NCBI RefSeq assembly: GCF_000959525.1
Contig: NZ_CP009831.1
Location: 1,054,001 to 1,118,000, forward strand
DNA length: 64,000 nucleotides
Direction: 5' to 3'
From: Burkholderia multivorans ATCC BAA-247
Lineage (GTDB): Bacteria > Pseudomonadota > Gammaproteobacteria > Burkholderiales > Burkholderiaceae
The stretch's first letter is position 1. The number at the start of each line of letters is the position of its first letter. Under the pieces are notes generated by a model. That model saw only the letters and a list, made by a program, of their open reading frames with translations, was not told the origin of the DNA and made no database searches. This document shows positions 12,594 through 36,339 of the stretch, piece by piece. The translations under genes and the position numbers were made by a program.

Positions 12594-15437
12594 GTGAATA
12601 TTTTGAAGTCGACGCGCCGTGAATCGGCACTACCGCCTGTGAGGCACGCCACGTTGCGAAGCGTGTTTGCCCGCATCCTCTCTGCCGTCGGTATCAGGCT
12701 CCTGTTCGTCGTCGTCGGCTTGGCGCTCGTCTCGGCCGGCGTGGCTTGCAACGCGATGCCCGCGCCGGCCGGGATGGTGTCGGAGCCTGCCGCCACGCCA
12801 GCGGGAGGCGTCGGCACCGTATCCGAGCCTGACGCCACACCGACGGAACCGGCCGACGCGCTTGCGGAGCCGACGACGACCGTACCCGCACGGCGTGTCG
12901 AATTCGACATCGAGACGCTGAAGGAGCGCGGTCTCGATCCGGCGCTCGCCCAGTACTTTGCGGAGAAGCCGCGCTTCGTCGGCGGCGTGCATCGTGTGTC
13001 GCTGTCCGTCAACGGTCAACCGCGCGGCACGGTCGACGTTCGCTTCGACGATCGCGGTAACGTCTGCTTCGACCGCACGTTGATCGGCCGCGCGCGCCTG
13101 CGCCTGCCGGACGAACTCACACCGCCGCGCCGGTGGAGCCTGCTCGCATTTCTGAGCGGACAGCAGCCGCTGCTTGCGGAGCCGGAGACGGTCGACACAC
13201 GCGAATCGGGCACCGACGGATCGGCATCGCGCGGCAACGACGCGGCGGGTGCCGCAGCGAACGATGCGCGTCGCGTTGCCGAATCCGAACGCCGGCTGGC
13301 ACAACCGTTCGCCGCGAACTGCTACGACTATCGGACGTTTCAGCCGCAGACCGAAGTCAGCGCCGATTCGGCGAAGGATATGGTCGAAATCGTCGTGCCG
13401 GCGGACGCGCTGACCCGGCCGCGTCCCGGCGATAACGCGTCGTCCGGCGGTGCCGGCGCGATGCTGAACTACAACGTCGTCGCAGGCGGCAGTCGCTCGA
13501 GCGGCAGCAGTACCGCGACGTTCCTGTCCGCGGATACCGAAGCCGGGTTCAATCTCGGCGACTGGGTCGTGCGCAGCGCGCAGACGTACTGGCGGCAGCA
13601 GGGCCAGGCCGAGTTTCAGATGCCGTACGCGTTTGCGCAGAAAACCGACGTCGAGACCGGCTATCTGGTGCAGGCGGGGCAGATCGGGATCCGGAACCCC
13701 GTGGTCAGCGGCATGCCGATCGAGGGCGTGCAGATCTTGCCCGACGACGCACTTGCGGCCAGCGACGGCGGCAGCACGATTCGCGGCGTCGCGACGCAGC
13801 AGTCGCGTGTCGAGGTCCGGCAGGCCGGCATTCTGATCTACACGACGCTGGTGCCGGCCGGGCCGTTTCTGCTGCGCAACGTGACGCTGATCGACCGCTC
13901 GTCGCTGATCGAAGTCACGCTGATCGACGACGCGAACAACAAGCGCAGCTTCACGGTCCCGCCTGCTTCGCTCGTCGCGCCGCGCGGCGCACCGCTCGGG
14001 CTGTCGCTCGCAATCGGCCGCGTGTACCAGTATCGCGGGCCGCGCGACATGGCGCGACCGATCGTGGTTTCCGTCGCGAAGGGATGGAACGTCGGCCGGC
14101 GGTCGAGCGTGGTGGCCGGCGCGATTGTCTCGTCGCGCCATCAGGGTGTCGGCGTCAGCCATTCGATGCCGCTGTTCGGAAACAGCGTATCGATGGGAAA
14201 CAACGCACAGCTCAGTCGTTCACCGACGCTCGGCGAGCGCGGCGCAAGCGTCGGACTCTCGTTGTCTGCGCAGCTGCCGGGCGACATATCGATGAACGTG
14301 CAGGCGAATCGACAGACGATCGGCTTTCGCTCACTGTCCGACACGCTGTATGACGTGCCCGATACCGTTCGCCGTTCGGCGTACTGGGAGATCATGCGCC
14401 ACTACCGGATCCGGGACGTGATGTCGGGCTCGGCGAGCTGGAACAGCAAGCAGCTCGGCGCGCTGTCGGCGTCGTTCAATCGCTTCTCGACGTACGCCGG
14501 CTTCTCCGGTCAGCACGTTGCCGCGTCCTGGAATCGTCAGTTCGGGCGAGCGAGCCTGTCGATCAACGTCGACCGTTCGCTCGGCCGCGGCACGACCGGC
14601 GACGATACGGCGATCTACGCGTCGCTGAGTTTTCCGCTTGGACCGGTTCACACGAGCACTTACGTGACTCGCAACGGCGGCATGCTGCGCGGCGGCGTGA
14701 ACGCGAGCCAGACCGTCAACGACTTCGTCAGTTACAACATCGGCGTCGAGCGTGGGCAGCACAGCGGCAGCGAGCGCGGATTCGCGACGCTGAGCTTGTG
14801 GCCGCGCTACACGCAGGTGTCGATCAGCGGTTCGGCGCAGCGCGACAGCGGATCGCTGTCTGCACAGGTGCAGGGCGGCATCGTCGCGACGAAGGCGGGC
14901 GTCACGCTGTCGCCGTACAGCATCGGCGAAACGTTCGGCATCGTGTCGACCGGTGAACTGTCGGGCGTGAGCATCAGCACGCCCGCGGGCATCGTGTGGA
15001 CCGATCCGCGCGGCAAGGCCGTGATCGGCAGCATTCCCGCGTATACCGAGGTCAGCACGGTAGTCCGTACCGAGACGTTGCCGCGCGACGTGGACGTGCG
15101 GAACGGCTATGCGGAGCTCAATGCGGGACGCGGATCGGTGAACTTCGTCGACATCGAGGTGCGCCGGACGAAAAGGATGCTGCTCAACGTGCATCTGCAA
15201 GACGGGAGCCCGCTGCCGGTCGGCGCATCGATTCGCGATGAGAAAGACCAGTACGTGACGACTGCCGTCGGCGACGGCGTCGTCTATCTCGATCAGGACC
15301 CGGCAGGGCCGCTCGTCGCGCGTTTGCCCGGCGGCGGTCGGTGCAACCTGCAGTTTCAGGTGCCCGACGCGCTGCGCGCGGACGCGACCGTCGCACAGAT
15401 CGACGCGACCTGCGATGCCGATTCCCATCCCAACTAG
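12594..15437 (+). CDS. Fimbrial outer-membrane usher protein
   Basis: Outer-membrane assembly platform that receives chaperone-subunit complexes and secretes the fimbria. About 947 residues from a GTG at 12594; no good ribosome site is visible, so the start is uncertain and could lie up to 70 bp downstream. A hydrophobic signal segment (about 34-50) is followed by an unusual low-complexity Ala/Pro/Thr/Glu stretch (about 52-100). The usher N-terminal domain then begins (VEFDIETLKERGLDP), followed by the central barrel and C-terminal beta-sandwich domains with two ADVRNGYAELNAGRG-like conserved turns. Family assignment rests on the barrel repeats, size and the neighbouring chaperone and pilin. 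The next gene starts 10 bp after its stop. Confidence 0.88.
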   Translation: MNILKSTRRESALPPVRHATLRSVFARILSAVGIRLLFVVVGLALVSAGVACNAMPAPAGMVSEPAATPAGGVGTVSEPDATPTEPADALAEPTTTVPARRVEFDIETLKERGLDPALAQYFAEKPRFVGGVHRVSLSVNGQPRGTVDVRFDDRGNVCFDRTLIGRARLRLPDELTPPRRWSLLAFLSGQQPLLAEPETVDTRESGTDGSASRGNDAAGAAANDARRVAESERRLAQPFAANCYDYRTFQPQTEVSADSAKDMVEIVVPADALTRPRPGDNASSGGAGAMLNYNVVAGGSRSSGSSTATFLSADTEAGFNLGDWVVRSAQTYWRQQGQAEFQMPYAFAQKTDVETGYLVQAGQIGIRNPVVSGMPIEGVQILPDDALAASDGGSTIRGVATQQSRVEVRQAGILIYTTLVPAGPFLLRNVTLIDRSSLIEVTLIDDANNKRSFTVPPASLVAPRGAPLGLSLAIGRVYQYRGPRDMARPIVVSVAKGWNVGRRSSVVAGAIVSSRHQGVGVSHSMPLFGNSVSMGNNAQLSRSPTLGERGASVGLSLSAQLPGDISMNVQANRQTIGFRSLSDTLYDVPDTVRRSAYWEIMRHYRIRDVMSGSASWNSKQLGALSASFNRFSTYAGFSGQHVAASWNRQFGRASLSINVDRSLGRGTTGDDTAIYASLSFPLGPVHTSTYVTRNGGMLRGGVNASQTVNDFVSYNIGVERGQHSGSERGFATLSLWPRYTQVSISGSAQRDSGSLSAQVQGGIVATKAGVTLSPYSIGETFGIVSTGELSGVSISTPAGIVWTDPRGKAVIGSIPAYTEVSTVVRTETLPRDVDVRNGYAELNAGRGSVNFVDIEVRRTKRMLLNVHLQDGSPLPVGASIRDEKDQYVTTAVGDGVVYLDQDPAGPLVARLPGGGRCNLQFQVPDALRADATVAQIDATCDADSHPN

Positions 15438-15447
15438 GGAGTATTCG

Positions 15448-15996
15448 ATGAACACGATTCGCACTTTGGCAATCGCGGCGTTCGTGCTGGGCGGTGTGAC
15501 GCTTGCCCGCGCCGAACGCTGCGCGATCGCCGTCAGCGATCCGAAGGTCGATTTCGGGCGCGTATTCGGCGACCGCATCGGCGCACCGCGCGGTGCCGAT
15601 CGCCGTCCGGTCGCGTCGGCGAACCGGGCGCTCGCCGTGCAGTGTCGACAGGAAAGCGTCGCGGCAATCCGCTTCGACGGCGTCCCGTCCGCGGACGGCA
15701 GCATCCGGCTCGGGGACGTAGCCCGCTACACGGTCACCGTGACGCGCGTCGCGCTCGACGGGCGCGACGTGATGGCGGGCGTTGCGCGAGGCGGCGATGC
15801 GGCGGCAGTCACGCCGGCCCCGCTGATCCTGATGCCGGGCGACATGCTCGTGCCGTACGACGCCAATCGTCCGGCAGCGGGCCGACGTCTCGACGTCTTT
15901 ATCCGGATCGACGCATTTCGAGCGGCCGAGACGACGCTGAGCGGCGAGGTGACGGTCACGTCCGAGCCGCGCTTCAGCGTCGTTTCCACGCCGTGA
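15448..15996 (+). CDS. Fimbrial minor subunit / tip-like protein
   Basis: 182-residue exported protein with a signal peptide cleaved after ARA. Its ATG at 15448 has AGGGAG upstream and lies 10 bp after the usher stop. The mature protein has a Cys near its N-terminus and another near residue 67, as in chaperone-usher subunits that form one disulphide, and a beta-rich pattern with VDFGRVFGD resembling the IDFG motif of the DUF1120 pilin downstream. Sequence similarity is weak and the call depends on its place between usher and chaperone. It may be the initiating or terminating subunit. Confidence 0.65.
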   Translation: MNTIRTLAIAAFVLGGVTLARAERCAIAVSDPKVDFGRVFGDRIGAPRGADRRPVASANRALAVQCRQESVAAIRFDGVPSADGSIRLGDVARYTVTVTRVALDGRDVMAGVARGGDAAAVTPAPLILMPGDMLVPYDANRPAAGRRLDVFIRIDAFRAAETTLSGEVTVTSEPRFSVVSTP

Positions 15997-16042
15997 GCGC
16001 GTTTCGTTCAACTTCGCTCTTTTCAAACCATATGGAGGACTG

Positions 16043-16891
16043 ATGTCTCATATCAATCGCATTCTGTCGGCACTGCTGCCGATCGCTCTGACTGCCGTCC
16101 CGGCAGCACCCGCGCATGCGGCCGGCATGGTGCCGGAAACGTCCGTCGTTCTGATCGACGAGGCCGTCGGCGAAACCGCAATGAAAGTCCGCAACACCGA
16201 CGACAAATCGGCGCTGCTGTACACGATCATCGAGCACGTGCCTGACGATCAGGAGAAGCTGTTCACCGTGACGCCGCCGGTCGCACGCGTCGACCCCGGT
16301 CAGACGCAGCTGGTTCGTTTCATCCTGACAAACAGGACGCCGCTGAAGACCGAGCGGCTCGCGCGCGTCGTCTTCGACACGATCGGCGAACGTAAGGACC
16401 CGGACGCAAGCATCGTCGCGATTCGCGTTCGTCAGAACCTGCCGGTGATCATGCACCCGAAAGGGCTCGCGGTGAATCGCGAGCCGTGGAAGCTGCTGAA
16501 GTGGGAAGCCGTCGACGGCAAGTTGCGCGTCGTGAATCCGAGCCCGTACGTCGTGCGTCTCGGCGCGACCGTCGAGGTGCTGCCGACGAAGAAGCAGGCG
16601 TACCTTCCGAACACGTACATGCTGCCCGGTCAGGCGACCTACGTGATGATGCCGAAAGACGACAAACGCAAGGGCGCGCCGCGCACGCCGTCCGCAAAGG
16701 ATGCTGCCATCACGGCCGAAGCGAAGGCCGAAATCGAAGAGATGCTGAAGCTCTACCCGGGCGCCACGTCGATTCGCTTCCAGCCGGCAACGAGCTACGG
16801 CTACATGGCCGACATCTACGAGGCGCGGATCGAAACGCCCGCAGGCAGCCATCAAACGAACGCCGCGCAAAGCGGTTCGGCATCGCGATGA
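16043..16891 (+). CDS. Periplasmic fimbrial chaperone (PapD family)
   Basis: 282 residues with an Ala-rich signal peptide cleaved near AHA-A. The mature protein has the PapD-like two-domain Ig fold pattern: subunit-binding strands with LLYTIIEHVPDD, then RVDPGQTQLVRF and ARVVFDTI, which correspond to the strand F/G region that donates the complementing strand. The C-terminal domain has NPSPYVVRL and the LPGQATYV turn. A polar tail after about residue 225 makes it longer than classical chaperones (about 230). A strong GGAGG site precedes the ATG. It keeps fimbrial subunits folded in the periplasm and hands them to the upstream usher. Confidence 0.88.
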   Translation: MSHINRILSALLPIALTAVPAAPAHAAGMVPETSVVLIDEAVGETAMKVRNTDDKSALLYTIIEHVPDDQEKLFTVTPPVARVDPGQTQLVRFILTNRTPLKTERLARVVFDTIGERKDPDASIVAIRVRQNLPVIMHPKGLAVNREPWKLLKWEAVDGKLRVVNPSPYVVRLGATVEVLPTKKQAYLPNTYMLPGQATYVMMPKDDKRKGAPRTPSAKDAAITAEAKAEIEEMLKLYPGATSIRFQPATSYGYMADIYEARIETPAGSHQTNAAQSGSASR

Positions 16892-16926
16892 CAATCGGGC
16901 CGGTCGCGGACGTCGTCAGGCAATTT

Positions 16927-17011
16927 AGAACTTGTTCTATATAAATTTGGATCACTGATCAATAGAATCTGTCACATCCGATATCGATGCCATTCTTTAT
17001 CGGATATTTTT
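16927..17011 (+). promoter_or_regulatory. Palindrome and hairpin in the gap before the major pilin
   Basis: The 151-bp gap between chaperone and pilin is AT-rich. It contains AGAAC-TT-GTTCT (16927-16938), next to a TATAAA-like hexamer. ATCCGATA (16976-16983) pairs with TATCGGAT (16998-17005) and is followed by ATTTTT (17006-17011), which resembles a weak rho-independent terminator. It may set separate or boosted pilin transcription, or process the operon mRNA. No function is proven. Confidence 0.45.
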
Positions 17012-17042
17012 GAGCAATCTGCTATACAACAGGAGAGCAGCA

Positions 17043-17945
17043 ATGAATCGAATGAAACTGAATCCGGCGCTGGGCGCGATCGCAATCGGCGTCGCGATGC
17101 TGGCCGCAGCACCTCAGGCATTCGCGCAGTCGTCCGCGGTGCTGAAGGTCACGGGCACGATCGTTCCGCCGGCATGCACGCCGACGTTCGAGGGCGGCAG
17201 CACGATCGACTTCGGCCAGGTGTCGCCCCGCGCGGATTTCACCAAGGTCGGCGAGAAGAAGACGTCGCTGCGCATCGCCTGTACGTCGCCTTCGTTCATC
17301 GCGTTCAAGGTCACCGACAACCGGAACGGTACGCAGGTCAATCGCGGTTTGCTGACGAACTCGAAGGACACGGTGATGAGCTGGCTGGTGCCGAACCTCG
17401 CGGATCAGGGCGGCGGCATCATGGGCTGGAACGACCAGCTGTTCGGCCTGGGCAAGACGACGAAGGGCGCGAAGATCGGCGCGTACTCGATGCAGCTTGG
17501 TGCGGCGAAGGTGTCGGGCTCGACGAGCGGCGGCCTCGGCTCGCTCACGAACCTGGCGGTCACGACCGGCGTCTCGCTGAGCGACTGGATGCCGGCCGTC
17601 GGCGGCATTGCCGATTCGACGTACAAGTCGATCGCCGGCATGGTGCCGGGCTTCAACGCATCGCATGGGCTGTGGATCACGCGCAGCGGGATGCTCGGTA
17701 AGCTGGATAGCGACACCGGTCTGTACATCGCGAAGAACTTCAAGTATTCGGCGGTGAACGCATTCAACATCGGCAATGCGCTGTCGATGGCGGTCGTCGG
17801 CGGCGGCGTCGCGCATGCGATCAACGGGACGAACTTCACGTTCCCGATCAAGGTGCGCGCGATGCTGAACTCGGCAAGCGAACTGGGTACCGGTACGGCC
17901 GAGAAGCTGGATGGTCAGGCGACGTTCGACCTCGTCTATATCTAA
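17043..17945 (+). CDS. Major fimbrial subunit, DUF1120-type pilin
   Basis: 300-residue exported protein. The ATG at 17043 follows AGGAGAGCAGCA, a better site than the in-frame GTG/TTG codons upstream. The signal peptide is cleaved after AFA-Q. The mature N-terminus VLKVTGTIVPPACTPTF with STIDFGQ matches the pattern of DUF1120 proteins (GltF/YhcF-like), which act as pilins in a subgroup of chaperone-usher fimbriae; cysteines near residues 43 and 82 probably form the subunit disulphide, and the C-terminus ends in the alternating hydrophobic DLVYI expected of a chaperone-binding last strand. It is long for a pilin because of a Gly/Ser-rich middle (about 125-240). Confidence 0.8.
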   Translation: MNRMKLNPALGAIAIGVAMLAAAPQAFAQSSAVLKVTGTIVPPACTPTFEGGSTIDFGQVSPRADFTKVGEKKTSLRIACTSPSFIAFKVTDNRNGTQVNRGLLTNSKDTVMSWLVPNLADQGGGIMGWNDQLFGLGKTTKGAKIGAYSMQLGAAKVSGSTSGGLGSLTNLAVTTGVSLSDWMPAVGGIADSTYKSIAGMVPGFNASHGLWITRSGMLGKLDSDTGLYIAKNFKYSAVNAFNIGNALSMAVVGGGVAHAINGTNFTFPIKVRAMLNSASELGTGTAEKLDGQATFDLVYI

Positions 17946-23150: not shown

Positions 23151-23172
23151 AAAAAAGGCCCTCGCGGGCCTT
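23151..23172 (-). terminator. Rho-independent terminator of the phosphonate operon
   Basis: Read leftward, GGCCC (23157-23161) and GGGCC (23166-23170) form a stem with a TCGC loop, extended by two A-T pairs and followed by a run of six T on the minus strand (23156-23151). It sits 22 bp after the phnW stop. Confidence 0.85.
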
Positions 23173-23193
23173 CGTCAACCGAACTGACGCAGC

Positions 23194-24258
23194 CTACCGC
23201 GTCAGCTCGCTGAACCCGTCCAGCAGCCGCTCGACGTCGGCCGCTTCGATCGCGCCCATCGTCGAGATGCGGAACAGTTCCTTCGACAACCCGCCTTGCC
23301 CCGCGTAAATCACGAAGCCGCGCGCCTTCAGCCCGTCGTGCAGCGCTTCATACGCGACGCCTTGCGGCAGCCGGTATGCGCGCAGCACGACCGACGACGC
23401 GCTTTCCGGCAGCACGAGCGGCATCCCGCGTGCGGCGAGCCCGGCCTGCGCCTGATCGGCGAGCGCCTTGTAGCGCGCATGACGCGCGCGCCAACCGCCC
23501 GCTTCGTCGAATTCGCGCAGCGCCTCGACGAGCGCGTAGTACGCATGCACGGACGGCGTGAACGGCGTGTTGCGCTGATCCTGCAGCTTCGCGAGACGGC
23601 CGAGGTCGAGATAGTAGGTGCGGCTCGCGGCGTTCGCGAGCGCGCTGCGGCGCACGATCACGAACGCCGCGCCCGGCACGCCGTGCAGGCACTTGTTGGC
23701 AGTCGCGGCGACGGCATCGATGTCGCCGCCCGCAAAATCGATCGCTTCCGCGCCGAAGCTGCTGACGCCGTCGACGAGCAGCTTCACGCCGCGTGCACGA
23801 CAGACGCCGGCGATCGCGCCGAGATCGTTCAGGCGGCCGGTCGTCGTCTCGTGATGGATCACCGCGACGTGCGAGTAGCCGCCTGCATCGAGCCGCGCGG
23901 CGATCTGCGCGAGATCGGGCGCCTGCATCCATTCGTGCTTGAGCACGTCGTGTGCGATCCCGTACTGCGTCGCGATCTGCGTGATGCGTTCACCGTACAC
24001 GCCGTTCTCGATCACGAGCAGCTTGCCGTCCTTCGGCACGAGCGCGGCGATCATGCTTTCGACGGCGGCCGTGCCCGAACCGGTCATCAGCACGGCAGTC
24101 CATTCGGCCGGATCGAGTTCGTATGCGGCGACGAGACGCGCACGCGCCTCGTCCTGCAGATCGAAGAATTCGCTTTCGCGATGGCACAGGTCCGGTTGCA
24201 GCAGGCTGCGGCGCACGCGTTCGGTCAGCGTGACCGGGCCAGGGTTCAGCAGCAGCAT
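23194..24258 (-). CDS. phnW: 2-Aminoethylphosphonate--pyruvate transaminase
   Basis: PLP-dependent class V aminotransferase interconverting phosphonoacetaldehyde/alanine and 2-aminoethylphosphonate (AEP)/pyruvate. The 354-residue protein starts LLLNPGPVTLT, typical for PhnW, with GSGTAAVE (60-67), the PLP-ring Asp163 in DGVSSFG and the Schiff-base Lys189 in ATANKCLHG. The enzyme is best known from AEP breakdown, but here it is the last gene of an operon that begins AEP synthesis with PEP mutase, so the direction is probably towards AEP. Its ATG overlaps the upstream decarboxylase stop by 1 bp (TGATG). No phnX phosphonatase is nearby, which supports a biosynthetic role. Confidence 0.95.
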   Translation of the reverse strand: MLLLNPGPVTLTERVRRSLLQPDLCHRESEFFDLQDEARARLVAAYELDPAEWTAVLMTGSGTAAVESMIAALVPKDGKLLVIENGVYGERITQIATQYGIAHDVLKHEWMQAPDLAQIAARLDAGGYSHVAVIHHETTTGRLNDLGAIAGVCRARGVKLLVDGVSSFGAEAIDFAGGDIDAVAATANKCLHGVPGAAFVIVRRSALANAASRTYYLDLGRLAKLQDQRNTPFTPSVHAYYALVEALREFDEAGGWRARHARYKALADQAQAGLAARGMPLVLPESASSVVLRAYRLPQGVAYEALHDGLKARGFVIYAGQGGLSKELFRISTMGAIEAADVERLLDGFSELTR

Positions 24259-25442
24259 CAGTGGGCTCCTTCAGGGGCTTCGGTCAGGGCGGCGGCGCCG
24301 ATGTGGCGCATCAGGCGCGTCTTCACGTCGACCGGCGTGACGGTCGGCCGCGGCAGCCCGTCGGGCACGCCCGTGCGGATCGCGAGCCGCACGAACTGTG
24401 CGCCGTCGGTGCGCGGCGCAGCCAGCGCCGCATCGAGCACGTCGAGCGTGTCGCCTTCGACTGCACTCGCATAGCCGCACGCGGCCGCGACGCCTGCGAA
24501 CGACACATGCTGCGACACGGTTGCCTGGCCGCCGGTCGATTCGTGCGCGCCGTTGTCGAGCAGCACATGCGTGAGGTTCGACGGGCCGTACGTGCCGAGC
24601 GTCGCGAACGCACCCATGCGCATCAGCGCGGCGCCGTCGCCGTCGACGGCCACCACGCGCAGATCGGGCCGCGCCAGCGCGAGGCCGAGCGCGAGCGGCG
24701 TCACGCAGCCCATCGAGCCGACCATGTAGAGCTGGTTCGGCCGATCGTCGAGCGCGTACAGCTCGCGGCCGCAGAAACCGGTAGAGGCGAGCACGACGGT
24801 CGAGTCGACCGGCGTATGCGCGATCACGCGCTGCAGCGCGTCGTGACGCGTCGGCCATGCATCGGGCGACGCCGCACGCGACGACGACCGCGCGGCGACA
24901 TGCGCGCGCGGCTGCGCGGCCGGATTCGCCTTCAGCTCATACGGCGCGACGCTGCCTTTCTGCATCACGAGTGCGTACGGGCGGCCCGTCGCGTCCATGT
25001 GCGCGATCGCGCGGTCGAGCGCCGGACCGACCTGTTCGGGGTCGGTCGGGAACGTCTCCCACGGGATCTCCATCGTGTCGAGCATCGCGGGCGTGATCGG
25101 CCCCATCAGCGCGTGCTGCGGCTCGTCGGCGACGCCCGGCTGGCCGCGCCAGGTGACGATCAGCAACTGCGGCAGGCGGAACGTCCACGTGAGCGACGTG
25201 AGCGGGCTGACGGCGTTGCCGAGCCCCGAGTTCTGCATCATCGCGATCCCGCGCTTGCCGCCGAGCGTCGCGCCGGCGATCAGCGCAACGGCGTCGCCTT
25301 CGTTCGCGGCCGACAGGTAGTGCAGCGTCGGGTCCTGCAGCACGTAGTTGATGAACGGCGTCAGGTACGAGCAGGGCACGCCCGCGTACCAGTCGAAGCC
25401 GCGTGCGCGTGCGGCCTCGACGAACTGGGCCGCTTCGATCAT
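24258..25442 (-). CDS. ppd: Phosphonopyruvate decarboxylase
   Basis: Thiamine-diphosphate enzyme that decarboxylates phosphonopyruvate to phosphonoacetaldehyde, the irreversible step that pulls the unfavourable PEP mutase reaction forward. 394 residues, family length. The N-terminal domain has GVPCSYL and the TPP-activating Glu in NEGDAV. The C-terminal domain has the Mg/TPP-binding motif VDGDGAALM with the paired Asn in [13 protein letters not shown]. The ATG at 25442 overlaps the pepM stop as ATGA. Also called aepY in some organisms. Confidence is high from motifs and context. Confidence 0.95.
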
Positions 25443-27127
25443 TGCGCGCCTCCGTTGCCGGCGCCCGGTTCGGACAGCGGCGTTTGTCCATGCGCGAAGT
25501 CGCCCGCGCGGCGGAAGTCTTCGAGATCGTTGACGCCGCGCCAGTGGCCGTGCACGTACTGCACCTCGATTTTCTCGCCGGCGTCGATCAGCGCGTTGAG
25601 CAGCGCGGGGATGTCGAGCGTGTCGAAATCGGCGCGTGCCTGCAGCGTCGCGAGCATCGCCTTCAGGCGCTCGACGCCGGCGCCGCGCACGTTCAGCAGC
25701 CCGATCCAGCGGCCGTGCGGCGTGCCGGCGGCGGCATCGCTCGACACGCGCTGGAGTAGCACCTTCTGGCCGAACAGCCCGCGGTCGTCGGCGGCCGAGC
25801 AGAACGCGAAGTCGCGCACGCTCTGGTTGGTCGGCTCGGTCAGCGACGAATCGACGACAACGCTGAACTCGGCCTCGCTTTCCGCGAGATCGCGCAGGAT
25901 GTAGCTGCGGAACAGGAGGTCGCCGTACGAGATCACGGTGTCGCCGGTCAGGCGCTCGGCCGCGCAGGCGAGCGATGCGAGCTCGCCCGTTTCGGCGTGG
26001 CGTTCGTTGACGACGAGCTTGATGCCCGACGTGTCGATCGCATCGGCGCGATAGCCGCCGACCACCGTGATGTCGTTCACGCCGTGCTTCTTGAAGCCGT
26101 CGACGAGCCAGCGCAGCAGCGGCTTGCCGGCAACGGGCAGCATCACCTTCGGCTTGTCCTCGGTGACGGCTTCGAGCCCCTTGCCGCGGCTCGCGGCGAG
26201 CACGACCGCCGCGTTCGACGCGCGCGACGACGACGACAGGTAGATGCGCTCGGCGGCCGAGTATTCGTCGGCGTCCTGCAGACGGAAGATCTCGTTGACC
26301 GACGCGACGCGATCCTCGACGTTGATCAGCGTTTCGCTCTCGTGGATCTCGCGCGCGACGGCCTGCATCGCCGACGCCGACGCGCGGATCAGATGGTTCG
26401 CCCAGATCACGGTGCTGATGCCGGCCTGGCGGAACACGTCGGTCGGCGTGCTGTAGTACTTGGTCGGCACGATCACGAGCGGCGCCTTGCCGCTCCATTC
26501 GCGCGCGAACTGCAGGATTTCGTCGGGACGCGACAGCTTGCTGTGGATCAGGATCGCGTCGGCGCCGGCTTCCGCATAGGCGTTCGCGCGGCGCAGCGCC
26601 TCGTCCATGCCCCAGCCCGCGATCAGCGCTTCGACGCGCGCGACGATCGAGAAGTCGGGGTCGCTTTGCGAATCCTTGCCGGCCTTGATCTTGCCGCAGA
26701 ATTCGTCGATCTCGGCGAGCGGCTGGCGCTCGCCGTCGATGAAGCTGTTCGTCTTCGGGAACTGCTTGTCCTCGATGCAGACGCCGGCGATGCCGCGCTG
26801 CTCGAGCTTCTTCACGAGGCGGCGCACGTTGTTGAAGTTGCCGTAGCCGGTGTCGCCGTCGAGCAGGATCGGCAGATCGCTCGCGTCGGCCATGAATTCG
26901 AGCACGTCGACGACCTGCGTCCAGCTCGCCTCGTTGTTGTCGCGTACGCCGAACTGCGCGGAGATCGCGAGGCCGGACGCCCAGATGCCCTTGAAGCCGG
27001 CTTCGCGCACGATGCGTGCGGACAGGCCGTTGTGGGCTTCCATCAGAAATTCGAGCTCGTCGCTGACGAGCATGCGGCGCAGGCGTGCGCTGCGCGATTC
27101 GGTGAAGTTGGGTTCGCGTGCATTCAT
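25439..27127 (-). CDS. pepM: Phosphoenolpyruvate mutase fused to a nucleotidyltransferase-like domain
   Basis: 562 residues. Residues 1-300 are an isocitrate-lyase-superfamily PEP mutase, with the diagnostic EDK-x5-NS motif (E119, D120, K121 ... N127, S128) and DGDTGYGN (90-97); it converts PEP to phosphonopyruvate by making the C-P bond. Residues about 305-562 are a NTP-transferase-type domain with [16 protein letters not shown] (323-338), but its nucleotide loop (311-318) lacks the usual G-x-G-x-R signature, so this half may be non-catalytic or altered. PEP mutase-cytidylyltransferase fusions are known from phosphonoglycan and phosphonolipid loci. The start is ATG 27127, overlapping the upstream nucleotidyltransferase stop (ATGA). 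Confidence 0.95.
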
Positions 27128-27891
27128 CGTGCGGCTCCCGCAGTGGTGCGTTGAATCAGGGGGAGGACGTCCTGCGCGGCGCGCGCGACGTCGTTCGGGA
27201 AATCGATTTCGATCCAGGGCGCGCCCGTGACGTCGGCGACGTCGAACGTGTGGCCGCCTTCGAGCAGCAGGTCGCGCACGGCTTCTTCGTGCGGCATGTT
27301 CGCGCGGCCGCTGTCGACGTAGCCCGCGACGATCGCCGCGAGGCGGCGCGCGGTGCCTTCGGTGAAGCGGAAGAAGCCGACCGACTCGCCGATCGTGTCG
27401 TAGTCGAGGTCGACCGCGAGCTGCTTGCGCAGCTCGACCGGCACGCCGTTCTTCAGGCACAGCTTGACGGGCTCGTCGCCGGCCTCGAAGTCGCGGTCGA
27501 TCAACAGGCGGTCGACCGGCTTGTCCGCGTCGGCCACGAGCGCGTGGAGAATGCTGTCGTCGTAGAGCACGTCGGCGTCCATCAGCAGCACGTCGCCGCC
27601 GCGCGTCATCGCATCGGCGACGGTATGCACGGTCAGCACGCTGCCCAGATCGTAGCGCTCGTTCAGCACGATCTCGGCGCGGCGGCCGAGGCGCTGCAGT
27701 TCCTGCTCGACCTTCTCGGCCTGGAAGCCGAGCCCGAGCACGATTTCGTCGACGCCGACGGCATCGAGCAGGCGCAGATGACGCTCGAGCAGCGACACGT
27801 CGTCGAAGCGCAGCAGGCACTTCGGAAACTGCGCTTCGGGCGGTTGTTGCAGGCGCAAGCCGAGGCCTGCCGCAAGAATGATGGCTCGCAT
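27124..27891 (-). CDS. Sugar/alcohol-phosphate nucleotidyltransferase, candidate AEP cytidylyltransferase
   Basis: 255-residue NTP-transferase (GT-A-like) starting [14 protein letters not shown], the intact nucleotide-binding signature, with KCLLRF downstream and [10 protein letters not shown] holding the metal-binding Asp (about residue 103-106). It resembles LicC/PntC-type cytidylyltransferases. In this operon the expected substrate is 2-aminoethylphosphonate, giving CMP-AEP; this specificity is inferred from neighbours. A GGAGAA site precedes the ATG at 27891. Its stop overlaps pepM by ATGA. It is more likely than the degenerate domain fused to PepM to carry the activity, or the two may act together. 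Confidence 0.85.
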
Positions 27892-27934
27892 GGGTTCTCC
27901 AACCAAAAAGCCGGCGGATCGGTGCGTGGACCGG

Positions 27935-28936
27935 TCAGTCGGCGAGCGGCTGCGGCGCACGGCGCCGCTGCCAGTTTCTTTCACTGAAATGCAGATAGAG
28001 CAGGCCGGGCAGGCCGAGCGCGAGTTCGCGCGCGCGTTTCGCGAGCGACAGCGCGAGCGCCGCGTCGGGCGGCAGACCGACGAGCGGCGCGAGGAGCAGG
28101 TAGCCGCCTTCCTGTGCGCCGAGCGAGCCGGGGATCGCGAAGGCCGCGCCGCGGATCGCCTGACCGACGCTTTCGAGCAGCAGTGCGTCGAGCCAGCCGA
28201 CCGGGTGACCGAGGAAGTGCAGCGCGAGCCACACCTCGACGGTGCCGACGATCCAGCCGGCGAGGCTCAAGGCGAAGGTCTGCGCGACCTTCGCGCGATC
28301 GCGGTACAGCGCGCCGACCGCATCGTCGATCGCGTCGGCGCGCGTCGCGAGCGACGACCAGTCGCGCGGGCCGAGCAGCTTCGACGCGAGCCGCAGCCCG
28401 TGTCCGAACAGCCCGCGCCGCTGTGCCGCATAGAACGCGACCGCGAGGCCGCCGAGCACGCCCGTCGCGATCAGCGCCGGCGTGCGCAGATAGGCGACCG
28501 AATCGTGCGTCGCATAGAGGCTGAACGCGGCGATGCCGATCAGCGCGAACGCCATCTGCGCGAGCGCCTGCATCGTCGTGCTGACCGTGATCGCGGCGGC
28601 CGAGTCGGCCATGCGCGTGCCGCGCTGCGCGAGATGGCGCACCATCAGCACCGGGCCGCCGATCTGGCCGGCCGGCAGCAGGCTGTTCACCGATTCGCCG
28701 ACCCAGCGCGCGCGCAGCGCGTTGCCGAGATCGGCGCCCGGCTGGCCGCGGCGGAACATCACCGAAATCGCGCCCGCGTCGATCGCGAGCGGCACCACGT
28801 GGAATGCCGCGACGAGCGCGAGCCCCCAGCCGGCCGCGAGCAGCGTCGACGCGACCGCGCCGACGCCCTGCCACGCGAGCAGTGCGATGAACAGCGCCGT
28901 CCCGAGGGACAGCAGAATCAGGCCCGCGCGCGTCAT
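27935..28936 (-). CDS. Flippase-like integral membrane protein (LPG_synthase_TM / UPF0104 family)
   Basis: 333 residues with about seven to eight hydrophobic helices and the family's conserved blocks: SLLPAGQIGGPVLM near residue 95 and GSLGAQEGGYLLLAPLVG near residue 275. Related proteins include the transmembrane part of MprF and HpnL-like proteins, which move or handle lipids across the inner membrane. In this operon it could translocate the phosphonate-headgroup lipid (inference). Its ATG overlaps the stop of the upstream oxygenase gene as ATGA, and 43 bp separate it from the nucleotidyltransferase downstream, the only sizeable gap in the operon. Confidence 0.85.
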   Translation of the reverse strand: MTRAGLILLSLGTALFIALLAWQGVGAVASTLLAAGWGLALVAAFHVVPLAIDAGAISVMFRRGQPGADLGNALRARWVGESVNSLLPAGQIGGPVLMVRHLAQRGTRMADSAAAITVSTTMQALAQMAFALIGIAAFSLYATHDSVAYLRTPALIATGVLGGLAVAFYAAQRRGLFGHGLRLASKLLGPRDWSSLATRADAIDDAVGALYRDRAKVAQTFALSLAGWIVGTVEVWLALHFLGHPVGWLDALLLESVGQAIRGAAFAIPGSLGAQEGGYLLLAPLVGLPPDAALALSLAKRARELALGLPGLLYLHFSERNWQRRRAPQPLAD

Positions 28937-29742
28937 GACCCCGTCGAGCGCCGCGGCGCCAGCTGCTTGAAGACCTGACGGAAGCCGAAATACGCGATCG
29001 CGTCCTTCATGTTCGAGATGAAGCGCTTCCACGGCCGCATGCCGGGGTTCGTCACGTATTCGAAGGTCAGCGACACGCGAATCTCGTCCTGGCCGAGCGG
29101 CGTGATGCGATGGCGCAGCTTGTCGCCGTCGAACAGCACGATGCCGCCGTCGGCAATCTGCACGGAGCCCGGTTCGTCGGGCACGTCCGGATTGCGCGTG
29201 TGCAGTTCGTAGTCGAGCCGGCACGACGATTCGTCGATCACGCCGATCAGCAGCGTATAGCGGCGGCCGTCGTAGTACGAGGTGTCGTAGTGCCAGCCGA
29301 TGTGGTCGCCCGGCTTCGTGTAGTAGTAGAGCGCGTACGCGTGCGGGTCGTCGTCGGGCGACAGCATCAGCTTGTCGCCGGTGATCTGTTCGAGAAAGCC
29401 GATCAGCGCCTTCGAGCGGTACAGCTCGGCGATGTACGGCGCCTGCTCGTCGATCGTGTGCCGGCTCACGCTGCCGCCCTGCTTGTGGCCGGGCAGGTAA
29501 TTGCGGTTCAGGCCGGCCTGCAGCGCGCGGGCGGCGTCGGCGAGTTTCGCGTGCGCCTCGGGCGGCAGGAACGTGTCGAGGTACAGGAACGAGCCCTGGC
29601 GCGTGTAGTCGCTGCGCAGGCGCTCGAGGTCGAGGCGGCCGACGCTGGCGGCCACGGTTCGATCGGGGTCGGAGACGGCCGCGCGCGCGGGCGCGGGACG
29701 TGCCGGAGCCAGCACGGAATCGTCGCGCGTGCTAGGAGTCAT
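28933..29742 (-). CDS. Fe(II)/2-oxoglutarate-dependent oxygenase, HalD/BesD-like family
   Basis: 269 residues. The cupin core has the iron ligands H151 and D153 (WHYDTSYYDG) and a distal His211 (KLRHRITPL), with Arg222 (EIRVSLTF) placed to bind 2-oxoglutarate. The overall sequence looks like the family that contains amino-acid halogenases of the BesD/HalD type, but those have Gly in place of the Asp ligand. The intact H-x-D predicts a hydroxylase. In this operon the plausible reaction is hydroxylation of AEP or of a lipid-linked AEP headgroup. The first 35 residues are Ala/Pro-rich and probably disordered. It overlaps both neighbours by ATGA, so it is an integral part of the operon. Confidence 0.85.
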   Translation of the reverse strand: MTPSTRDDSVLAPARPAPARAAVSDPDRTVAASVGRLDLERLRSDYTRQGSFLYLDTFLPPEAHAKLADAARALQAGLNRNYLPGHKQGGSVSRHTIDEQAPYIAELYRSKALIGFLEQITGDKLMLSPDDDPHAYALYYYTKPGDHIGWHYDTSYYDGRRYTLLIGVIDESSCRLDYELHTRNPDVPDEPGSVQIADGGIVLFDGDKLRHRITPLGQDEIRVSLTFEYVTNPGMRPWKRFISNMKDAIAYFGFRQVFKQLAPRRSTGS

Positions 29743-30419
29743 TTGGAAGCCTGGATTTCGGTTGAATTCTGCGGAACGTTGCCGCGCCTGACGATGCGCC
29801 ACCAGTCGATCACGACCCACGCGGCGAACAGCGGCGCGCCGATCGACGCCGCGAGCAGGAACGGCTCGACGCCGTCGGTCAGCGTGACGAGCGGCAGCAG
29901 ATACAGCACGTCCTCGGTTTCGAAGCCGCCGACGAACGCCTGCCGCGTGCCGGCCTTGCCGGCGAACGATTCGATGCGCATCCGCAGATAGAAGATCAGC
30001 GCGACCGCCGCGCCGGCCGCCGCGCCGAGCAGCACAGGCGACGCGGCCATCCGGCCGCCTTGCGCGACGATCCCGACGCCCATGCTGACGAACAGCGCGA
30101 TCGTCACGAGCGCGTCGGCGGCGAGGTCGTAAAAATGACCGATCTTGCTCGACTTGCCGCTGATGCGCGCGAGCTCGCCGTCGGTATGGTCGACGAAGTT
30201 CGACAGCACGATCAGGAACGCGCCCGCGTTGCTCCAGCCGAAACCGCCTTGCGCCAGGCACCAGGCGCCGGCGAGGCCGATCAGCAGACGGACGGTAGTG
30301 AGGTGATTCGGGGTGACCGGCGTGTCGACGAGCGGCCGGACAAGCGAGCGCGCGAGCCGCGCATCCCAGGTGCGCGGCAGGGGTGGCTCGGAGCGTGTTG
30401 CGGTTTTTCTGTGGTCCAT
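29739..30419 (-). CDS. CDP-alcohol phosphatidyltransferase family membrane protein
   Basis: 226-residue inner-membrane enzyme with the complete family signature D-x2-D-G-x2-A-R-x8-G-x3-D-x3-D (D77, D80, G81, A84, R85, G94, D98, D102) and about six hydrophobic helices. Family members transfer a phospho-alcohol from a CDP/CMP-activated donor to a lipid or alcohol acceptor. With AEP synthesis and a nucleotidyltransferase encoded in the same operon, the likely donor is CMP-AEP and the acceptor diacylglycerol or a similar lipid, giving a phosphonolipid. This is inference. It is the first gene of the operon, with the start at 30419, and its stop overlaps the oxygenase start. Confidence 0.88.
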   Translation of the reverse strand: MDHRKTATRSEPPLPRTWDARLARSLVRPLVDTPVTPNHLTTVRLLIGLAGAWCLAQGGFGWSNAGAFLIVLSNFVDHTDGELARISGKSSKIGHFYDLAADALVTIALFVSMGVGIVAQGGRMAASPVLLGAAAGAAVALIFYLRMRIESFAGKAGTRQAFVGGFETEDVLYLLPLVTLTDGVEPFLLAASIGAPLFAAWVVIDWWRIVRRGNVPQNSTEIQASK

Positions 30420-34773: not shown

Positions 34774-36339
34774 TTATGCGTCCAGAAACGCGTGCGCGCC
34801 TTCGGCTTCGGCGGCCGTGCGCAGCGCGGCGAGCGCGCGCTTCTCGATCTGGCGCACGCGCTCGCGAGACATCCCGGCATCCTTCGCGATCGCGTCGTAG
34901 GTGTCCGGCTCGGTGCCGCCGAGACCGAAGCGCCGGCGCAGCACGTCGGCCTCGGCCGGCGTGACCGAACGCAGCAGCGATCGCACGCATTCGCGCATGC
35001 GCGCGCCGGCCAGCTGTTCGAACGGGCTCGCGGATGTTTCGTCCTCGATCAGGTCGACGAGGCCGGTGTCGGCGTCCGGCAGCGGCGTGTCGAGCGAGAC
35101 CGGCTCGGCCGGCAGCGCGAGAATCGCGCGCAGCTTGTCCTCCGCCAGGCCGGTTTCGGCCGCGAGTTCGGCCGGCGTCGGCTGACGGCCCGTGCGCTGA
35201 CGGAAGCGCAGCGCTTGCCGCCGCACGCGCTGATGCTGATCGCCGACGTGGACGGGCACGCGGATCGTCCGCGCGCGGTCCGCGACCGCACGTGCGATCG
35301 CCTGCCGGATCCACCAGGTCGCATACGTCGAAAACTTGAATCCGCGCCGGTATTCGAACTTCTCGATCGCGCGCATCAGCCCGATGCAGCCGTCCTGCAC
35401 GAGGTCGGACAGATCGACGCCGCGGTTCAGGTACTTGCGCGCGATCGACAGCACGAGCCGCAGATTTGCCTCGAGCATCGCGCGCGTCGCGTCGCGCACC
35501 TTCTGCTGCCCGTCGTTCAGCGCCGCGACCAGTGCGCGGCGCGCAACGGCGTCGAAGCACGCGGCGTCCGCGCCGGCGATCGCGCGCGCCGCGTCGTCGC
35601 GCGACGCGGCCGCAAGCGCGCGTACGACGCGGCTTGCGTCGTCGACGGCCGATGTGACCCAGGTCAGCGCGCCGAGCTCGGCCGCGAGACGATCGCGGGC
35701 GTCGCGATAGGCGCTCGATCGGCAGCCGTGCGCATGCAGCGCGCGCCGCACGTCGGCGAGGGCATCGCGTACCGCGTCGAAGCGGGCGGCTGCCGGTGCG
35801 TCGGCGCTGTCGTTCGCGTCGTCGGCGTCGCCGTCGCTGCGGTCGGGCGCGCTCGCCGCCGTCGTGCCGATGCGCGCCAGCAGCGCGTCGACCGCCGGCG
35901 GACAACCGGCGAGCGCATGCAGCATCTGGTGGCGCCCGGTTTCGAGCTCGCGCGCAAGCGCGATTTCGTCTTCGCGCGTGAGCAGCGGCACTGCGTGCAT
36001 GCGACGCATGTACAGCGCGAGCGGATCGGTCGACGCGCTCGCGCCGCGCGCGAGATCGCCGAGCAGCGCGCGACCCTCTTCGAGCGCGTCGCGATCGACG
36101 TCGACCGCGGGCGCGGCCGCGAACGGCGGCGGCGCGGCCGGCTCGTCGAGCACGGTGATCCCGATGTCCGCGAGCGCGGCGCGCACGACATCGAGCGCAT
36201 CGGGGCTGTCGCTTTCGGGCGGCAGCGCGTCGACGAGATCGGCGTGCGTCAGATAACCCTGCTCGCTGGCCAGCGCGAGCAGCTGGATGATCGGATCGAG
36301 GGGCGTGTCCGCCCGGGACGTGGGGCGTGGCGTAGTCAT
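34774..36339 (-). CDS. RpoD-like (group 1/2) sigma-70 family RNA polymerase sigma factor
   Basis: 521 residues with all regions of a primary-type sigma factor. Region 1.1 (about 15-65, [19 protein letters not shown]), region 1.2 (about 103-135, [12 protein letters not shown]), a shortened non-conserved region, region 2 ([21 protein letters not shown], then [14 protein letters not shown]), region 3, and region 4.2 with the [20 protein letters not shown]. coli RpoD is 613 residues; this one has a shorter Ala-rich insert between 1.2 and 2.1. Regions 2.3-2.4 nearly match RpoD but region 4.2 differs more. It is likely a second, paralogous sigma70 rather than the housekeeping copy, since dnaG/rpsU are not adjacent. 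Confidence 0.9.

What the first reader, a model, noticed from the sequence alone, without database searches (positions are those of the whole stretch)
23194..30419. Seven-gene, translationally coupled operon predicted to make a (hydroxylated) phosphonolipid
PepM, Ppd and PhnW make 2-aminoethylphosphonate; an intact nucleotidyltransferase and a canonical CDP-alcohol phosphatidyltransferase can activate and transfer it to a lipid; a flippase-like protein and an Fe/2OG oxygenase complete the set. Six of seven junctions are 1-4-bp overlaps, so the unit is under selection as a whole. The chemistry of the full pathway is not something I know to be described for Burkholderia.
Basis: partly seen in the sequence, partly recalled or inferred. 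Interest (0 to 1): 0.88.

Follow-up and report, generated by a model that had tools for sequence, protein, structure and literature searches.

The report
Hopanoid-linked phosphonate lipid operon
A seven-gene bacterial operon probably makes a carbon-phosphorus head group and fixes it to a membrane lipid; in many species it keeps company with the genes for hopanoids, the bacterial counterparts of cholesterol, so the lipid may be an undescribed phosphonate-bearing hopanoid.

Summary
The operon is real and almost as described: seven genes for making aminoethylphosphonate (AEP), activating it and transferring it to an alcohol, with an Fe/2OG oxygenase and an HpnL-family membrane protein. Five of six junctions overlap, not six of seven. 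PepM is in 64 of 65 Burkholderia genomes. The gene set is in print: a 2018 Nostoc paper shows the Burkholderia cluster and discusses phosphonolipids.

New is the hopanoid connection. The "flippase" is HpnL, a hopanoid-associated family. In four of eleven Burkholderiaceae genera the operon lies near the hopanoid island. A scan with only the PepM-fused domain gave 80 alphaproteobacterial-type loci; with 8 kb held on both sides, a hopanoid gene was nearby in 22 of 27 with the phosphotransferase and 2 of 12 without. Squalene-hopene cyclase is in 73 of 73 operon-marker-positive Burkholderiaceae genomes tested and 5 of 24 negatives. In the window's own genome the two lie 857 kb apart.

I favour AEP transfer to a bacteriohopanepolyol (about 0.45) over diacylglycerol (about 0.35). 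No chemistry tests either. A Roseomonas linkage was noted in print in 2021. The PepM-fused domain lacks a catalytic arginine in 100 of 104 proteins parsed.

The parts
29739..30419 (-). CDP-alcohol phosphotransferase, 226 aa, canonical DGxxARx8GxxxDxxxD motif; predicted to transfer the AEP/hydroxy-AEP phosphonate from its CMP ester to a lipid alcohol
   Evidence: PF01066 53.2 bits, cut-off 22; motif read in the translation; nearest solved relative AF2299, 4o6m
28933..29742 (-). Fe(II)/2-oxoglutarate oxygenase, HalD/BesD-like, 269 aa, with H151-Y-D153, H211, R222: a hydroxylase-type facial triad (that halogenases have Gly in place of the Asp is recalled); predicted AEP or AEP-lipid hydroxylase
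   Evidence: PF23169 52.3 bits; H151, D153, H211, R222 invariant in 25 aligned sequences; HYD in 31 of 32 rows, the other row being cut short; HalD alignment
27935..28936 (-). HpnL-family membrane protein, 333 aa, predicted lipid translocase
   Evidence: TIGR03476 HpnL 369.2 bits, cut-off 195.65; a second HpnL of the same genome lies in an hpnI/J/K/L-like group (those gene names are mine, from the translations)
27124..27891 (-). stand-alone nucleotidyltransferase, 255 aa, GxGxR...PK kept; predicted CTP:AEP cytidylyltransferase (PntC-like)
   Evidence: PF12804; best solved match is T. denticola Tde1415 (PntC) 6pd1/6pd2, E 6.6e-12
25439..27127 (-). PepM (phosphoenolpyruvate mutase, [10 protein letters not shown]) with fused C-terminal PF12804 domain that lacks the Arg of GxGxR; the fused domain is probably not a working nucleotidyltransferase
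   Evidence: TIGR02320 408.6 bits; motif comparisons
24258..25442 (-). Ppd, phosphonopyruvate decarboxylase
   Evidence: TIGR03297 482.6 bits, cut-off 312.5
23194..24258 (-). AEP aminotransferase (PhnW/AepZ type)
   Evidence: TIGR03301 400.8 bits, cut-off 360.8
23154..23173 (-). terminator-like hairpin followed by a T run just after the last gene
   Evidence: consensus scan: 8 such sites found in the region, 4.3 expected from shuffles, so weak evidence by itself; no promoter-like site was found

Best explanation
The operon makes AEP (PepM, Ppd, aminotransferase), activates it as CMP-AEP (the stand-alone nucleotidyltransferase, not the fused domain), transfers it to a membrane lipid alcohol (CDP-alcohol phosphotransferase), hydroxylates the head group at some stage (Fe/2OG enzyme) and turns the product over in the inner membrane (HpnL). 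The lipid most likely belongs to the hopanoid system. The favoured acceptor is a C35 bacteriohopanepolyol such as bacteriohopanetetrol, giving an AEP- or hydroxy-AEP-hopanoid that HpnN could carry to the outer membrane. Shown here: the genes, their motifs, conserved order, and association with hopanoid genes. Inferred: every reaction, above all the acceptor and the hydroxylation step.
For: Families and motifs. HpnL is hopanoid-associated: PMC12583986 (passages) lists hpnL among hopanoid genes of unestablished function. Mycetohabitans rhizoxinica: the seven genes, then dxs, two hypothetical genes, an MMPL transporter, an ABC substrate-binding protein, ispH, hpnH, hpnA, a glycosyltransferase, a hypothetical gene, shc, hpnD. 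pepM-shc gap 11.6-33.6 kb in 9 of 41 PepM-positive family genomes tested, in 4 of 11 genera. Roseomonas marmotae: the set without the oxygenase lies inside the hopanoid island. Scan with the PepM-fused domain alone: best 80 of 181 loci; hopanoid gene in the locus in 33 of 46 with the phosphotransferase and 8 of 34 without; with 8 kb or more on both sides 22 of 27 against 2 of 12 (Fisher p 2e-4, not corrected for relatedness). Of 46 loci with the phosphotransferase 44 have the stand-alone nucleotidyltransferase. In ten marine-type loci that I picked, hpnA and the nucleotidyltransferase share a strand in all ten and lie within about 110 bp in 8, with stop and start overlapping in L224. Curated models confirm Shc, HpnH, HpnA and HpnN in L233. 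shc in 77 of the 80 genomes, hpnH in 49 of 50 tested, against shc in 50 of 398 Pseudomonadota. All 6 genomes titled Caulobacterales, Caulobacter or Phenylobacterium have both, while PMC12583986 Table 2 gives Shc in 3 of 55 Caulobacter and 3 of 61 Phenylobacterium (passage). Burkholderiaceae: shc in 73 of 73 operon-marker-positive and 5 of 24 negative genomes tested. A differently ordered set in another Burkholderiales family (G778) also comes with shc.
Against: No chemical data. In the window's own genome shc is 857 kb away. In 7 of 11 family genera no linkage was seen: of 41 PepM-positive genomes 11 have shc on the same contig but 114 kb or more away, and in 21 it is on another contig. The Burkholderiaceae linkage keeps one gene order and may be one inherited event. 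5 of 27 well-covered phosphotransferase-bearing alpha loci have no hopanoid gene in the locus. The identity thresholds were set after I had seen; weak hpnA-like matches (23-34%), many of them in loci without the phosphotransferase, were not counted. The 80 loci are those nearest a Roseomonas query; 101 others were not seen. Hopanoid genes are usual in Acetobacteraceae (PMC8776678 passages), so shc presence there says little. The tree-based test of phosphotransferase against linkage is only suggestive (7 independent pairs, median p 0.0625). Burkholderiaceae negatives are mostly small genomes, which would lose both. In L233 the HpnL is below its cut-off (159.2/195.65). Nearest named relatives of the phosphotransferase (archaetidylinositol-phosphate and PI-phosphate synthases, below cut-off) are not known to use hopanoids (recalled). 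The survey passages seen report only one BHP at 0.1 mg/g for Muricoccus pecuniae DSM 25622, the strain of locus L176, and no phosphonate.
Confidence: 0.45

Rival explanations
1. The product is a glycerophosphonolipid: CMP-AEP is transferred to diacylglycerol in a Kennedy-type reaction, and hydroxylated to hydroxy-AEP-diacylglycerol. The hopanoid link reflects co-regulation of two membrane lipids, not a covalent bond. This is close to the published proposal and to the first reader's.
For: Phosphonolipid synthesis proposed for Nostoc with the Burkholderia cluster for comparison (PMC5987646 passages); [quoted passage not shown] diacylglycerol is always available; AEP-specific PntC activity is proven in relatives (PMC6697681, sections 6-10).
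Against: Does not predict that phosphotransferase-bearing clusters, more than the others, sit near hopanoid genes (22 of 27 against 2 of 12), nor an HpnL-family translocase, nor that no operon-marker-positive Burkholderiaceae genome tested lacks shc (0 of 73).
Confidence: 0.35
2. The phosphonate is put on a glycan, lipopolysaccharide or protein, or released as a soluble compound; the CDP-alcohol phosphotransferase acts on a sugar or polyol phosphate as some relatives do.
For: Many PepM clusters are thought to decorate cell-surface glycans (PMC6697681); the curated models matched, below cut-off, by both the nucleotidyltransferase and the phosphotransferase include a bifunctional inositol-phosphate enzyme (NF041135); PMC8776678 speaks of an 'undiscovered terpene-phosphonate' without a structure (passages).
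Against: No glycosyltransferase or LicD-like gene among the seven by Pfam; an HpnL-type membrane protein and, in relatives, hopanoid neighbours instead.
Confidence: 0.12
3. A separate question from the acceptor: the Fe/2OG enzyme does something other than hydroxylate AEP, for example act on the lipid chain or hopanoid side chain, or halogenate.
For: Its closest solved relatives are halogenases and lysine hydroxylases at weak E-values (2.6e-4 and worse); substrate cannot be read from sequence.
Against: HYD triad, not the halogenase HxG, in all 25 sequences; an unrelated PhyH-type Fe/2OG gene stands close by in 34 of 80 alpha clusters, as if the same step were filled twice.
Confidence: 0.3

Closest known systems
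Nostoc II lichen cyanobiont phosphonate cluster and its Burkholderia homologue (PMC5987646, Fig. 7 legend; passages seen)
   Same: Same gene set: CDP-alcohol phosphotransferase, 2OG-Fe(II), NTP transferase, pepM, ppd, AEP aminotransferase, hpnL; hydroxy-AEP among the abbreviations; shown beside a Burkholderia cluster
   Different: Presented as phosphonolipid synthesis adapted from earlier work; the passages seen say nothing of a hopanoid acceptor or of linkage to hopanoid islands
Roseomonas shc-pepM hybrid clusters (PMC8776678; passages seen)
   Same: shc linked to pepM; suggests an undiscovered terpene-phosphonate
   Different: Acetobacteraceae only; no assignment of phosphotransferase, HpnL or nucleotidyltransferase and no link to Burkholderia in the passages seen
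PntC cytidylyltransferases of Treponema denticola (Tde1415) and A. rimae (Ari1348) (PMC6697681, sections 6-10)
   Same: The stand-alone nucleotidyltransferase is most similar, among solved structures, to Tde1415; Arg and Lys of GxGxR...PK kept
   Different: There the genomic context is LicD- or glycosyltransferase-like; here a CDP-alcohol phosphotransferase. PepM-fused PF12804 domains, counted there among nucleotidyltransferases, lack the Arg in nearly all of the set examined here
hpnIJKL genes of bacteriohopanetetrol cyclitol ether synthesis (recalled; hpnI, hpnJ, hpnK roles also in PMC12583986 passages)
   Same: Both contain an HpnL membrane protein next to head-group enzymes
   Different: The HpnL of the window's operon belongs to another clade than the genome's second HpnL

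Membership tests
AEP biosynthesis (PepM-Ppd-aminotransferase) | PepM with EDKxxxxxNS | tested here: met
   [14 protein letters not shown]02320 above cut-off
AEP biosynthesis (PepM-Ppd-aminotransferase) | Ppd and AEP aminotransferase above curated cut-offs | tested here: met
PntC phosphonate cytidylyltransferase | GxG(T/S)RX4-8PK loop with Arg and Lys | tested here: inconclusive
   Stand-alone enzyme [16 protein letters not shown]: Arg and Lys kept, but Leu for T/S and 9 residues before PK; a looser GxGxR..PK pattern fits 96 of 98 stand-alone rows, one of the two misses being a fused domain picked up in error
PntC phosphonate cytidylyltransferase | CTP:AEP activity | not testable with these tools
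   needs assay
PntC phosphonate cytidylyltransferase (the PepM-fused domain) | Arg of GxGxR | tested here: not met
   absent in the window's protein; Arg or Lys there in only 4 of 104 proteins parsed, of 112
CDP-alcohol phosphotransferase | DGxxARx8GxxxDxxxD | tested here: met
   in the window's protein; 73 of 86 rows in the wider set, 3 of the 13 misses being fragments
HpnL | TIGR03476 above cut-off | tested here: met
   369.2 bits, cut-off 195.65
Fe/2OG halogenase (HalD/BesD) | Gly or Ala in place of the facial-triad Asp (recalled) | tested here: not met
   HYD in all 25 aligned
Glycerophosphonolipid pathway | diacylglycerol is the acceptor | not testable with these tools
   needs lipid analysis
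Hopanoid pathway | genomic linkage to hopanoid genes | tested here: inconclusive
   met in 4 of 11 Burkholderiaceae genera and in 33 of 46 phosphotransferase-bearing alpha loci; not met in the window's own genome (857 kb)
Hopanoid pathway | hopanoid genes present in the same genome | tested here: met
   shc at G000:C2:220142-222028

The most novel reading that the evidence does not exclude
The operon makes phosphonohopanoids: CMP-AEP (or CMP-hydroxy-AEP) is transferred to a bacteriohopanepolyol, and HpnL and HpnN move the product outward. This would be a class of carbon-phosphorus triterpenoids that is core in Burkholderia, recurs in Alphaproteobacteria, and has escaped notice in hopanoid surveys.
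Probability: 0.42. Interest if true: 0.88.

Novelty: new variant of a known kind. Interest (0 to 1): 0.72.

Why it matters
Hopanoids are the bacterial sterol analogues and the source of major molecular fossils, yet the role of HpnL is unestablished (PMC12583986 passages). If their polar ends can carry AEP, that would explain what a core Burkholderia operon does, give HpnL a substrate, link phosphonate chemistry to hopanoid biology and supply concrete masses to look for. Even if the acceptor is diacylglycerol, the prediction is testable and shows why mass spectrometry alone could have missed it: the hydroxylated head group is an isomer of phosphoethanolamine. The likely loss of activity in the PepM-fused domain also bears on a published inference that such fusions signify nucleotidyl activation.

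Tried and rejected
Rejected: 'six of seven overlaps' (five of six). Rejected: the fused PepM domain as the AEP activator, because its Arg is missing and because in one genus (g20, 4 of 4 genomes read) the stand-alone enzyme stays with the phosphotransferase, oxygenase and HpnL where the operon is split, while the fused protein goes with Ppd. Rejected: halogenation (HYD triad). Left open: whether hydroxylation comes before or after activation.

Led nowhere or weak: a plasmid search with the oxygenase gave only Burkholderiaceae (14 records). PepM hits outside the family with a fused domain (G435, G443, G494, G580, G608) had no phosphotransferase match at E 1e-6 in the fetched stretches, some of them short; of these five genomes only G608 has shc. 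G658 has shc and an HpnL near PepM, but no phosphotransferase was found. In the HpnL tree five of twelve 'other HpnL' rows were not used: L089 was dropped by the program, and L093, L112, L114, L116 look misread (wrong frame). Seven rows remain in one clade, two of them the same gene. In one search eight of 112 fused domains could not be parsed. Rfam, PHROGs, PADLOC and fold searches were not run. Yu et al. 2013 (PNAS), cited by others for the pathway, was not held and was not seen.

Paper searches behind 'hopanoid link of the Burkholderia operon not found in print': in the open-licence PMC library only; apart from the papers cited, I saw listings.


Full report
WHAT IS THERE. Seven intact minus-strand ORFs fill 23194-30419: CDP-alcohol phosphotransferase, Fe/2OG oxygenase, HpnL-family membrane protein, nucleotidyltransferase, PepM with a fused C-terminal PF12804 domain, Ppd, and AEP aminotransferase. 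Junctions are 4, 4, a 43-bp gap, 4, 4 and 1 bp: five overlaps of six, not six of seven. A terminator-like hairpin follows the last gene and no promoter-like site was found. The divergent neighbour upstream is a succinyl-CoA:acetate CoA-transferase. The window is from Burkholderia multivorans or a near relative: a B. multivorans record matches the oxygenase at 99.3% and PepM at 99.6%.

HOW COMMON. PepM (562-aa query, E 1e-60) is in 64 of 65 Burkholderia genomes. The oxygenase is in 179 of 299 family genomes. I read stretches from 31 other family genomes: 25 hold all seven genes in the same order, two more agree as far as the contig or stretch goes, and in genus g20 all 4 are split into [phosphotransferase, oxygenase, HpnL, nucleotidyltransferase] and [PepM, Ppd, aminotransferase], the aminotransferase not being seen in one. 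In G102 a short match to the nucleotidyltransferase lies beside PepM, as if the split came after the joined state. The split is informative: the stand-alone nucleotidyltransferase goes with the lipid end of the pathway.

ACTIVATION STEP. Among solved structures the stand-alone enzyme is most like T. denticola Tde1415 (6pd1/6pd2, E 6.6e-12), an AEP cytidylyltransferase (PMC6697681; abstract and sections 6-10 seen). It keeps the Arg and Lys that matter there. The PepM-fused domain is nearer LicC (1jyk, E 7.1e-14; 6pd1, E 6.3e-4) and has lost the Arg of GxGxR: none of 38 aligned proteins has it, and in a wider set 4 of 104 parsed proteins (of 112) have Arg or Lys at that place. Arg15Ala in Tde-PntC left under 10% activity (PMC6697681 section 9). 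I infer that the fused domain is a pseudo-nucleotidyltransferase. In the sections read, that paper tests no PepM-fused PF12804 domain.

OXYGENASE. It is HalD/BesD-like but has HYD, H211 and R222, invariant in 25 aligned sequences: a hydroxylase signature (the rule is recalled). It was found in none of the 80 alphaproteobacterial-type loci. There a PhyH-family Fe/2OG gene lies close by in 34 of 80, one further weak partial match being left out. Two different Fe/2OG families at a like place suggest the same chemical step. Oxidation of AEP to 1-hydroxy-AEP has precedent in PhnY* (PMC8154272 passages).

THE HOPANOID LINK. HpnL is a hopanoid-associated family (PMC12583986 passages). The window's genome has a second HpnL in a neighbourhood whose ORFs read as hpnI, hpnJ, hpnK (my naming). 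In Mycetohabitans rhizoxinica the operon runs into dxs and then the hopanoid island with hpnH, hpnA, shc and hpnD. Related arrangements were read in genera g11, g16 and g7, with dxs absent in some. The pepM-shc gap is 11.6-33.6 kb in 9 of 41 PepM-positive family genomes; in 11 it is 114 kb or more, and in 21 the two are on different contigs. Roseomonas marmotae has the set without the oxygenase inside its hopanoid island, in another order; its HpnL passes TIGR03476 and its HpnN passes TIGR03480 while just missing NF052374.

I then scanned genome contigs (one genome for each of 84,980 species) with an alignment of the PepM-fused domain only, so that the query carried no hopanoid information. 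181 loci were confirmed and the best 80, nearest a Roseomonas first sequence, were kept: 76 with titles naming alphaproteobacterial groups, three titled only Proteobacteria and one titled Mycobacterium. At identity thresholds that I set, a hopanoid gene was in the locus in 41 of 80: 33 of 46 with a phosphotransferase, 8 of 34 without (many of these cut short by contig ends). Where at least 8 kb was held on both sides, 22 of 27 against 2 of 12. Weak hpnA-like matches of 23-34% were taken as ordinary epimerases and not counted. About five arrangements differ from the Burkholderiaceae one. In ten marine-type loci that I picked, hpnA runs into the nucleotidyltransferase on the same strand, within about 110 bp in 8, with a stop/start overlap in L224. 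Curated models confirm Shc, HpnH, HpnA and HpnN in L233 and HpnN in Caulobacter sp. S45; the HpnL of L233 is below its cut-off.

CO-OCCURRENCE. shc is in 77 of the 80 genomes (48 of 50; 29 of 30), hpnH in 49 of 50 tested. Over 398 Pseudomonadota genomes shc is in 50, 47 of them over the cut-off. Most of the 80 come from groups where hopanoids are usual; the telling ones are the six titled Caulobacterales, Caulobacter or Phenylobacterium, all with both genes, while a published table gives Shc in 3 of 55 Caulobacter and 3 of 61 Phenylobacterium genomes (PMC12583986, passage). In Burkholderiaceae 73 of 73 tested genomes positive for PepM (41) or the oxygenase (32) have shc, and 5 of 24 negatives do (8 without PepM, 16 without the oxygenase). 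I chose these from the lists; one of the 8, G194, lacks PepM but has an oxygenase match, and another, G071, has only a broken shc match. The negatives are largely small genomes, so this is an implication, not proof. A set in another Burkholderiales family (G778) has the oxygenase and a different order, and its genome has shc. Conversely, fused PepM without a phosphotransferase match in the fetched stretch was found in G435, G443, G494 and G580, none with shc.

INDEPENDENCE. On a PepM tree of 112 proteins linkage changes at least 11 times. In 7 independent pairs that differ in the phosphotransferase, linkage goes the same way in 4.6 on average, the other way in none (median p 0.0625). This is suggestive only; the tree is a quick one with long branches. 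The HpnLs of 13 Burkholderiaceae phosphonate operons form one clade apart from the seven usable other HpnL rows.

AGAINST. In the window's own genome shc lies 857 kb away. Seven of eleven family genera show no linkage. The Burkholderiaceae linkage keeps one order and may be one event. No chemical measurement supports any product. Muricoccus (Roseomonas) pecuniae DSM 25622, the strain of locus L176, was in a published BHP survey with a single BHP at 0.1 mg/g (passages); that can be read either as no phosphonohopanoid or as hopanoid that was not seen.

WHAT IS KNOWN ALREADY. PMC5987646 (passages) shows the same gene set in Nostoc and Burkholderia and discusses phosphonolipids. PMC8776678 (passages) notes shc linked to pepM in some Roseomonas and suggests a terpene-phosphonate. 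A search for hopene cyclase with phosphoenolpyruvate mutase finds only that paper in this library. PMC12871164 (passages) concerns another Burkholderia phosphonate cluster. I found no paper that links the Burkholderia operon with hopanoids (searches listed under Tried and rejected).

VERDICT. A real, core operon for a phosphonate lipid head group, already recognised as such. The new element is its tie to hopanoids, which makes a phosphonohopanoid the reading I favour by a small margin over diacylglycerol.

Noticed in passing
window 25439-26209 (C-terminal domain of PepM): The PepM-fused PF12804 domain lacks the catalytic Arg of GxGxR here and in 100 of 104 proteins parsed, which questions counting such fusions as nucleotidyl activation.
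   Followed up: partly
L233:8127-8885 and 33 other alphaproteobacterial-type loci: A PhyH-family Fe/2OG gene lies close to the nucleotidyltransferase or PepM in 34 of 80 clusters, seemingly in place of the HalD/BesD-like enzyme of Burkholderiaceae.
   Followed up: partly
G058, G024, G016: PepM has an in-frame TAG in one Burkholderia genome, is in three pieces in a second and was not found in a third.
   Followed up: no
L145 (G143): In one g20 genome no aminotransferase match was found after PepM-Ppd, although the rest of the set exists elsewhere.
   Followed up: no
L190: A record titled Mycobacterium sp. KBS0706 carries an Inquilinus-type cluster; probably a mislabelled genome.
   Followed up: no
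L233, L221, L225: Some loci hold two or more CDP-alcohol phosphotransferase matches.
   Followed up: no
L171, L176, L179, L213-L216, L219, L230, L235: An MlaA/VacJ lipoprotein gene match lies near the cluster, beside hpnN in several, suggesting an outer-membrane lipid transport context.
   Followed up: no
window 34774-36339: A 521-aa sigma-70 factor, RpoD-like and partly like MzaA of an anti-phage system, below the cut-offs of both models.
   Followed up: no
window 12594-17945: Fimbrial usher-like and chaperone genes.
   Followed up: no
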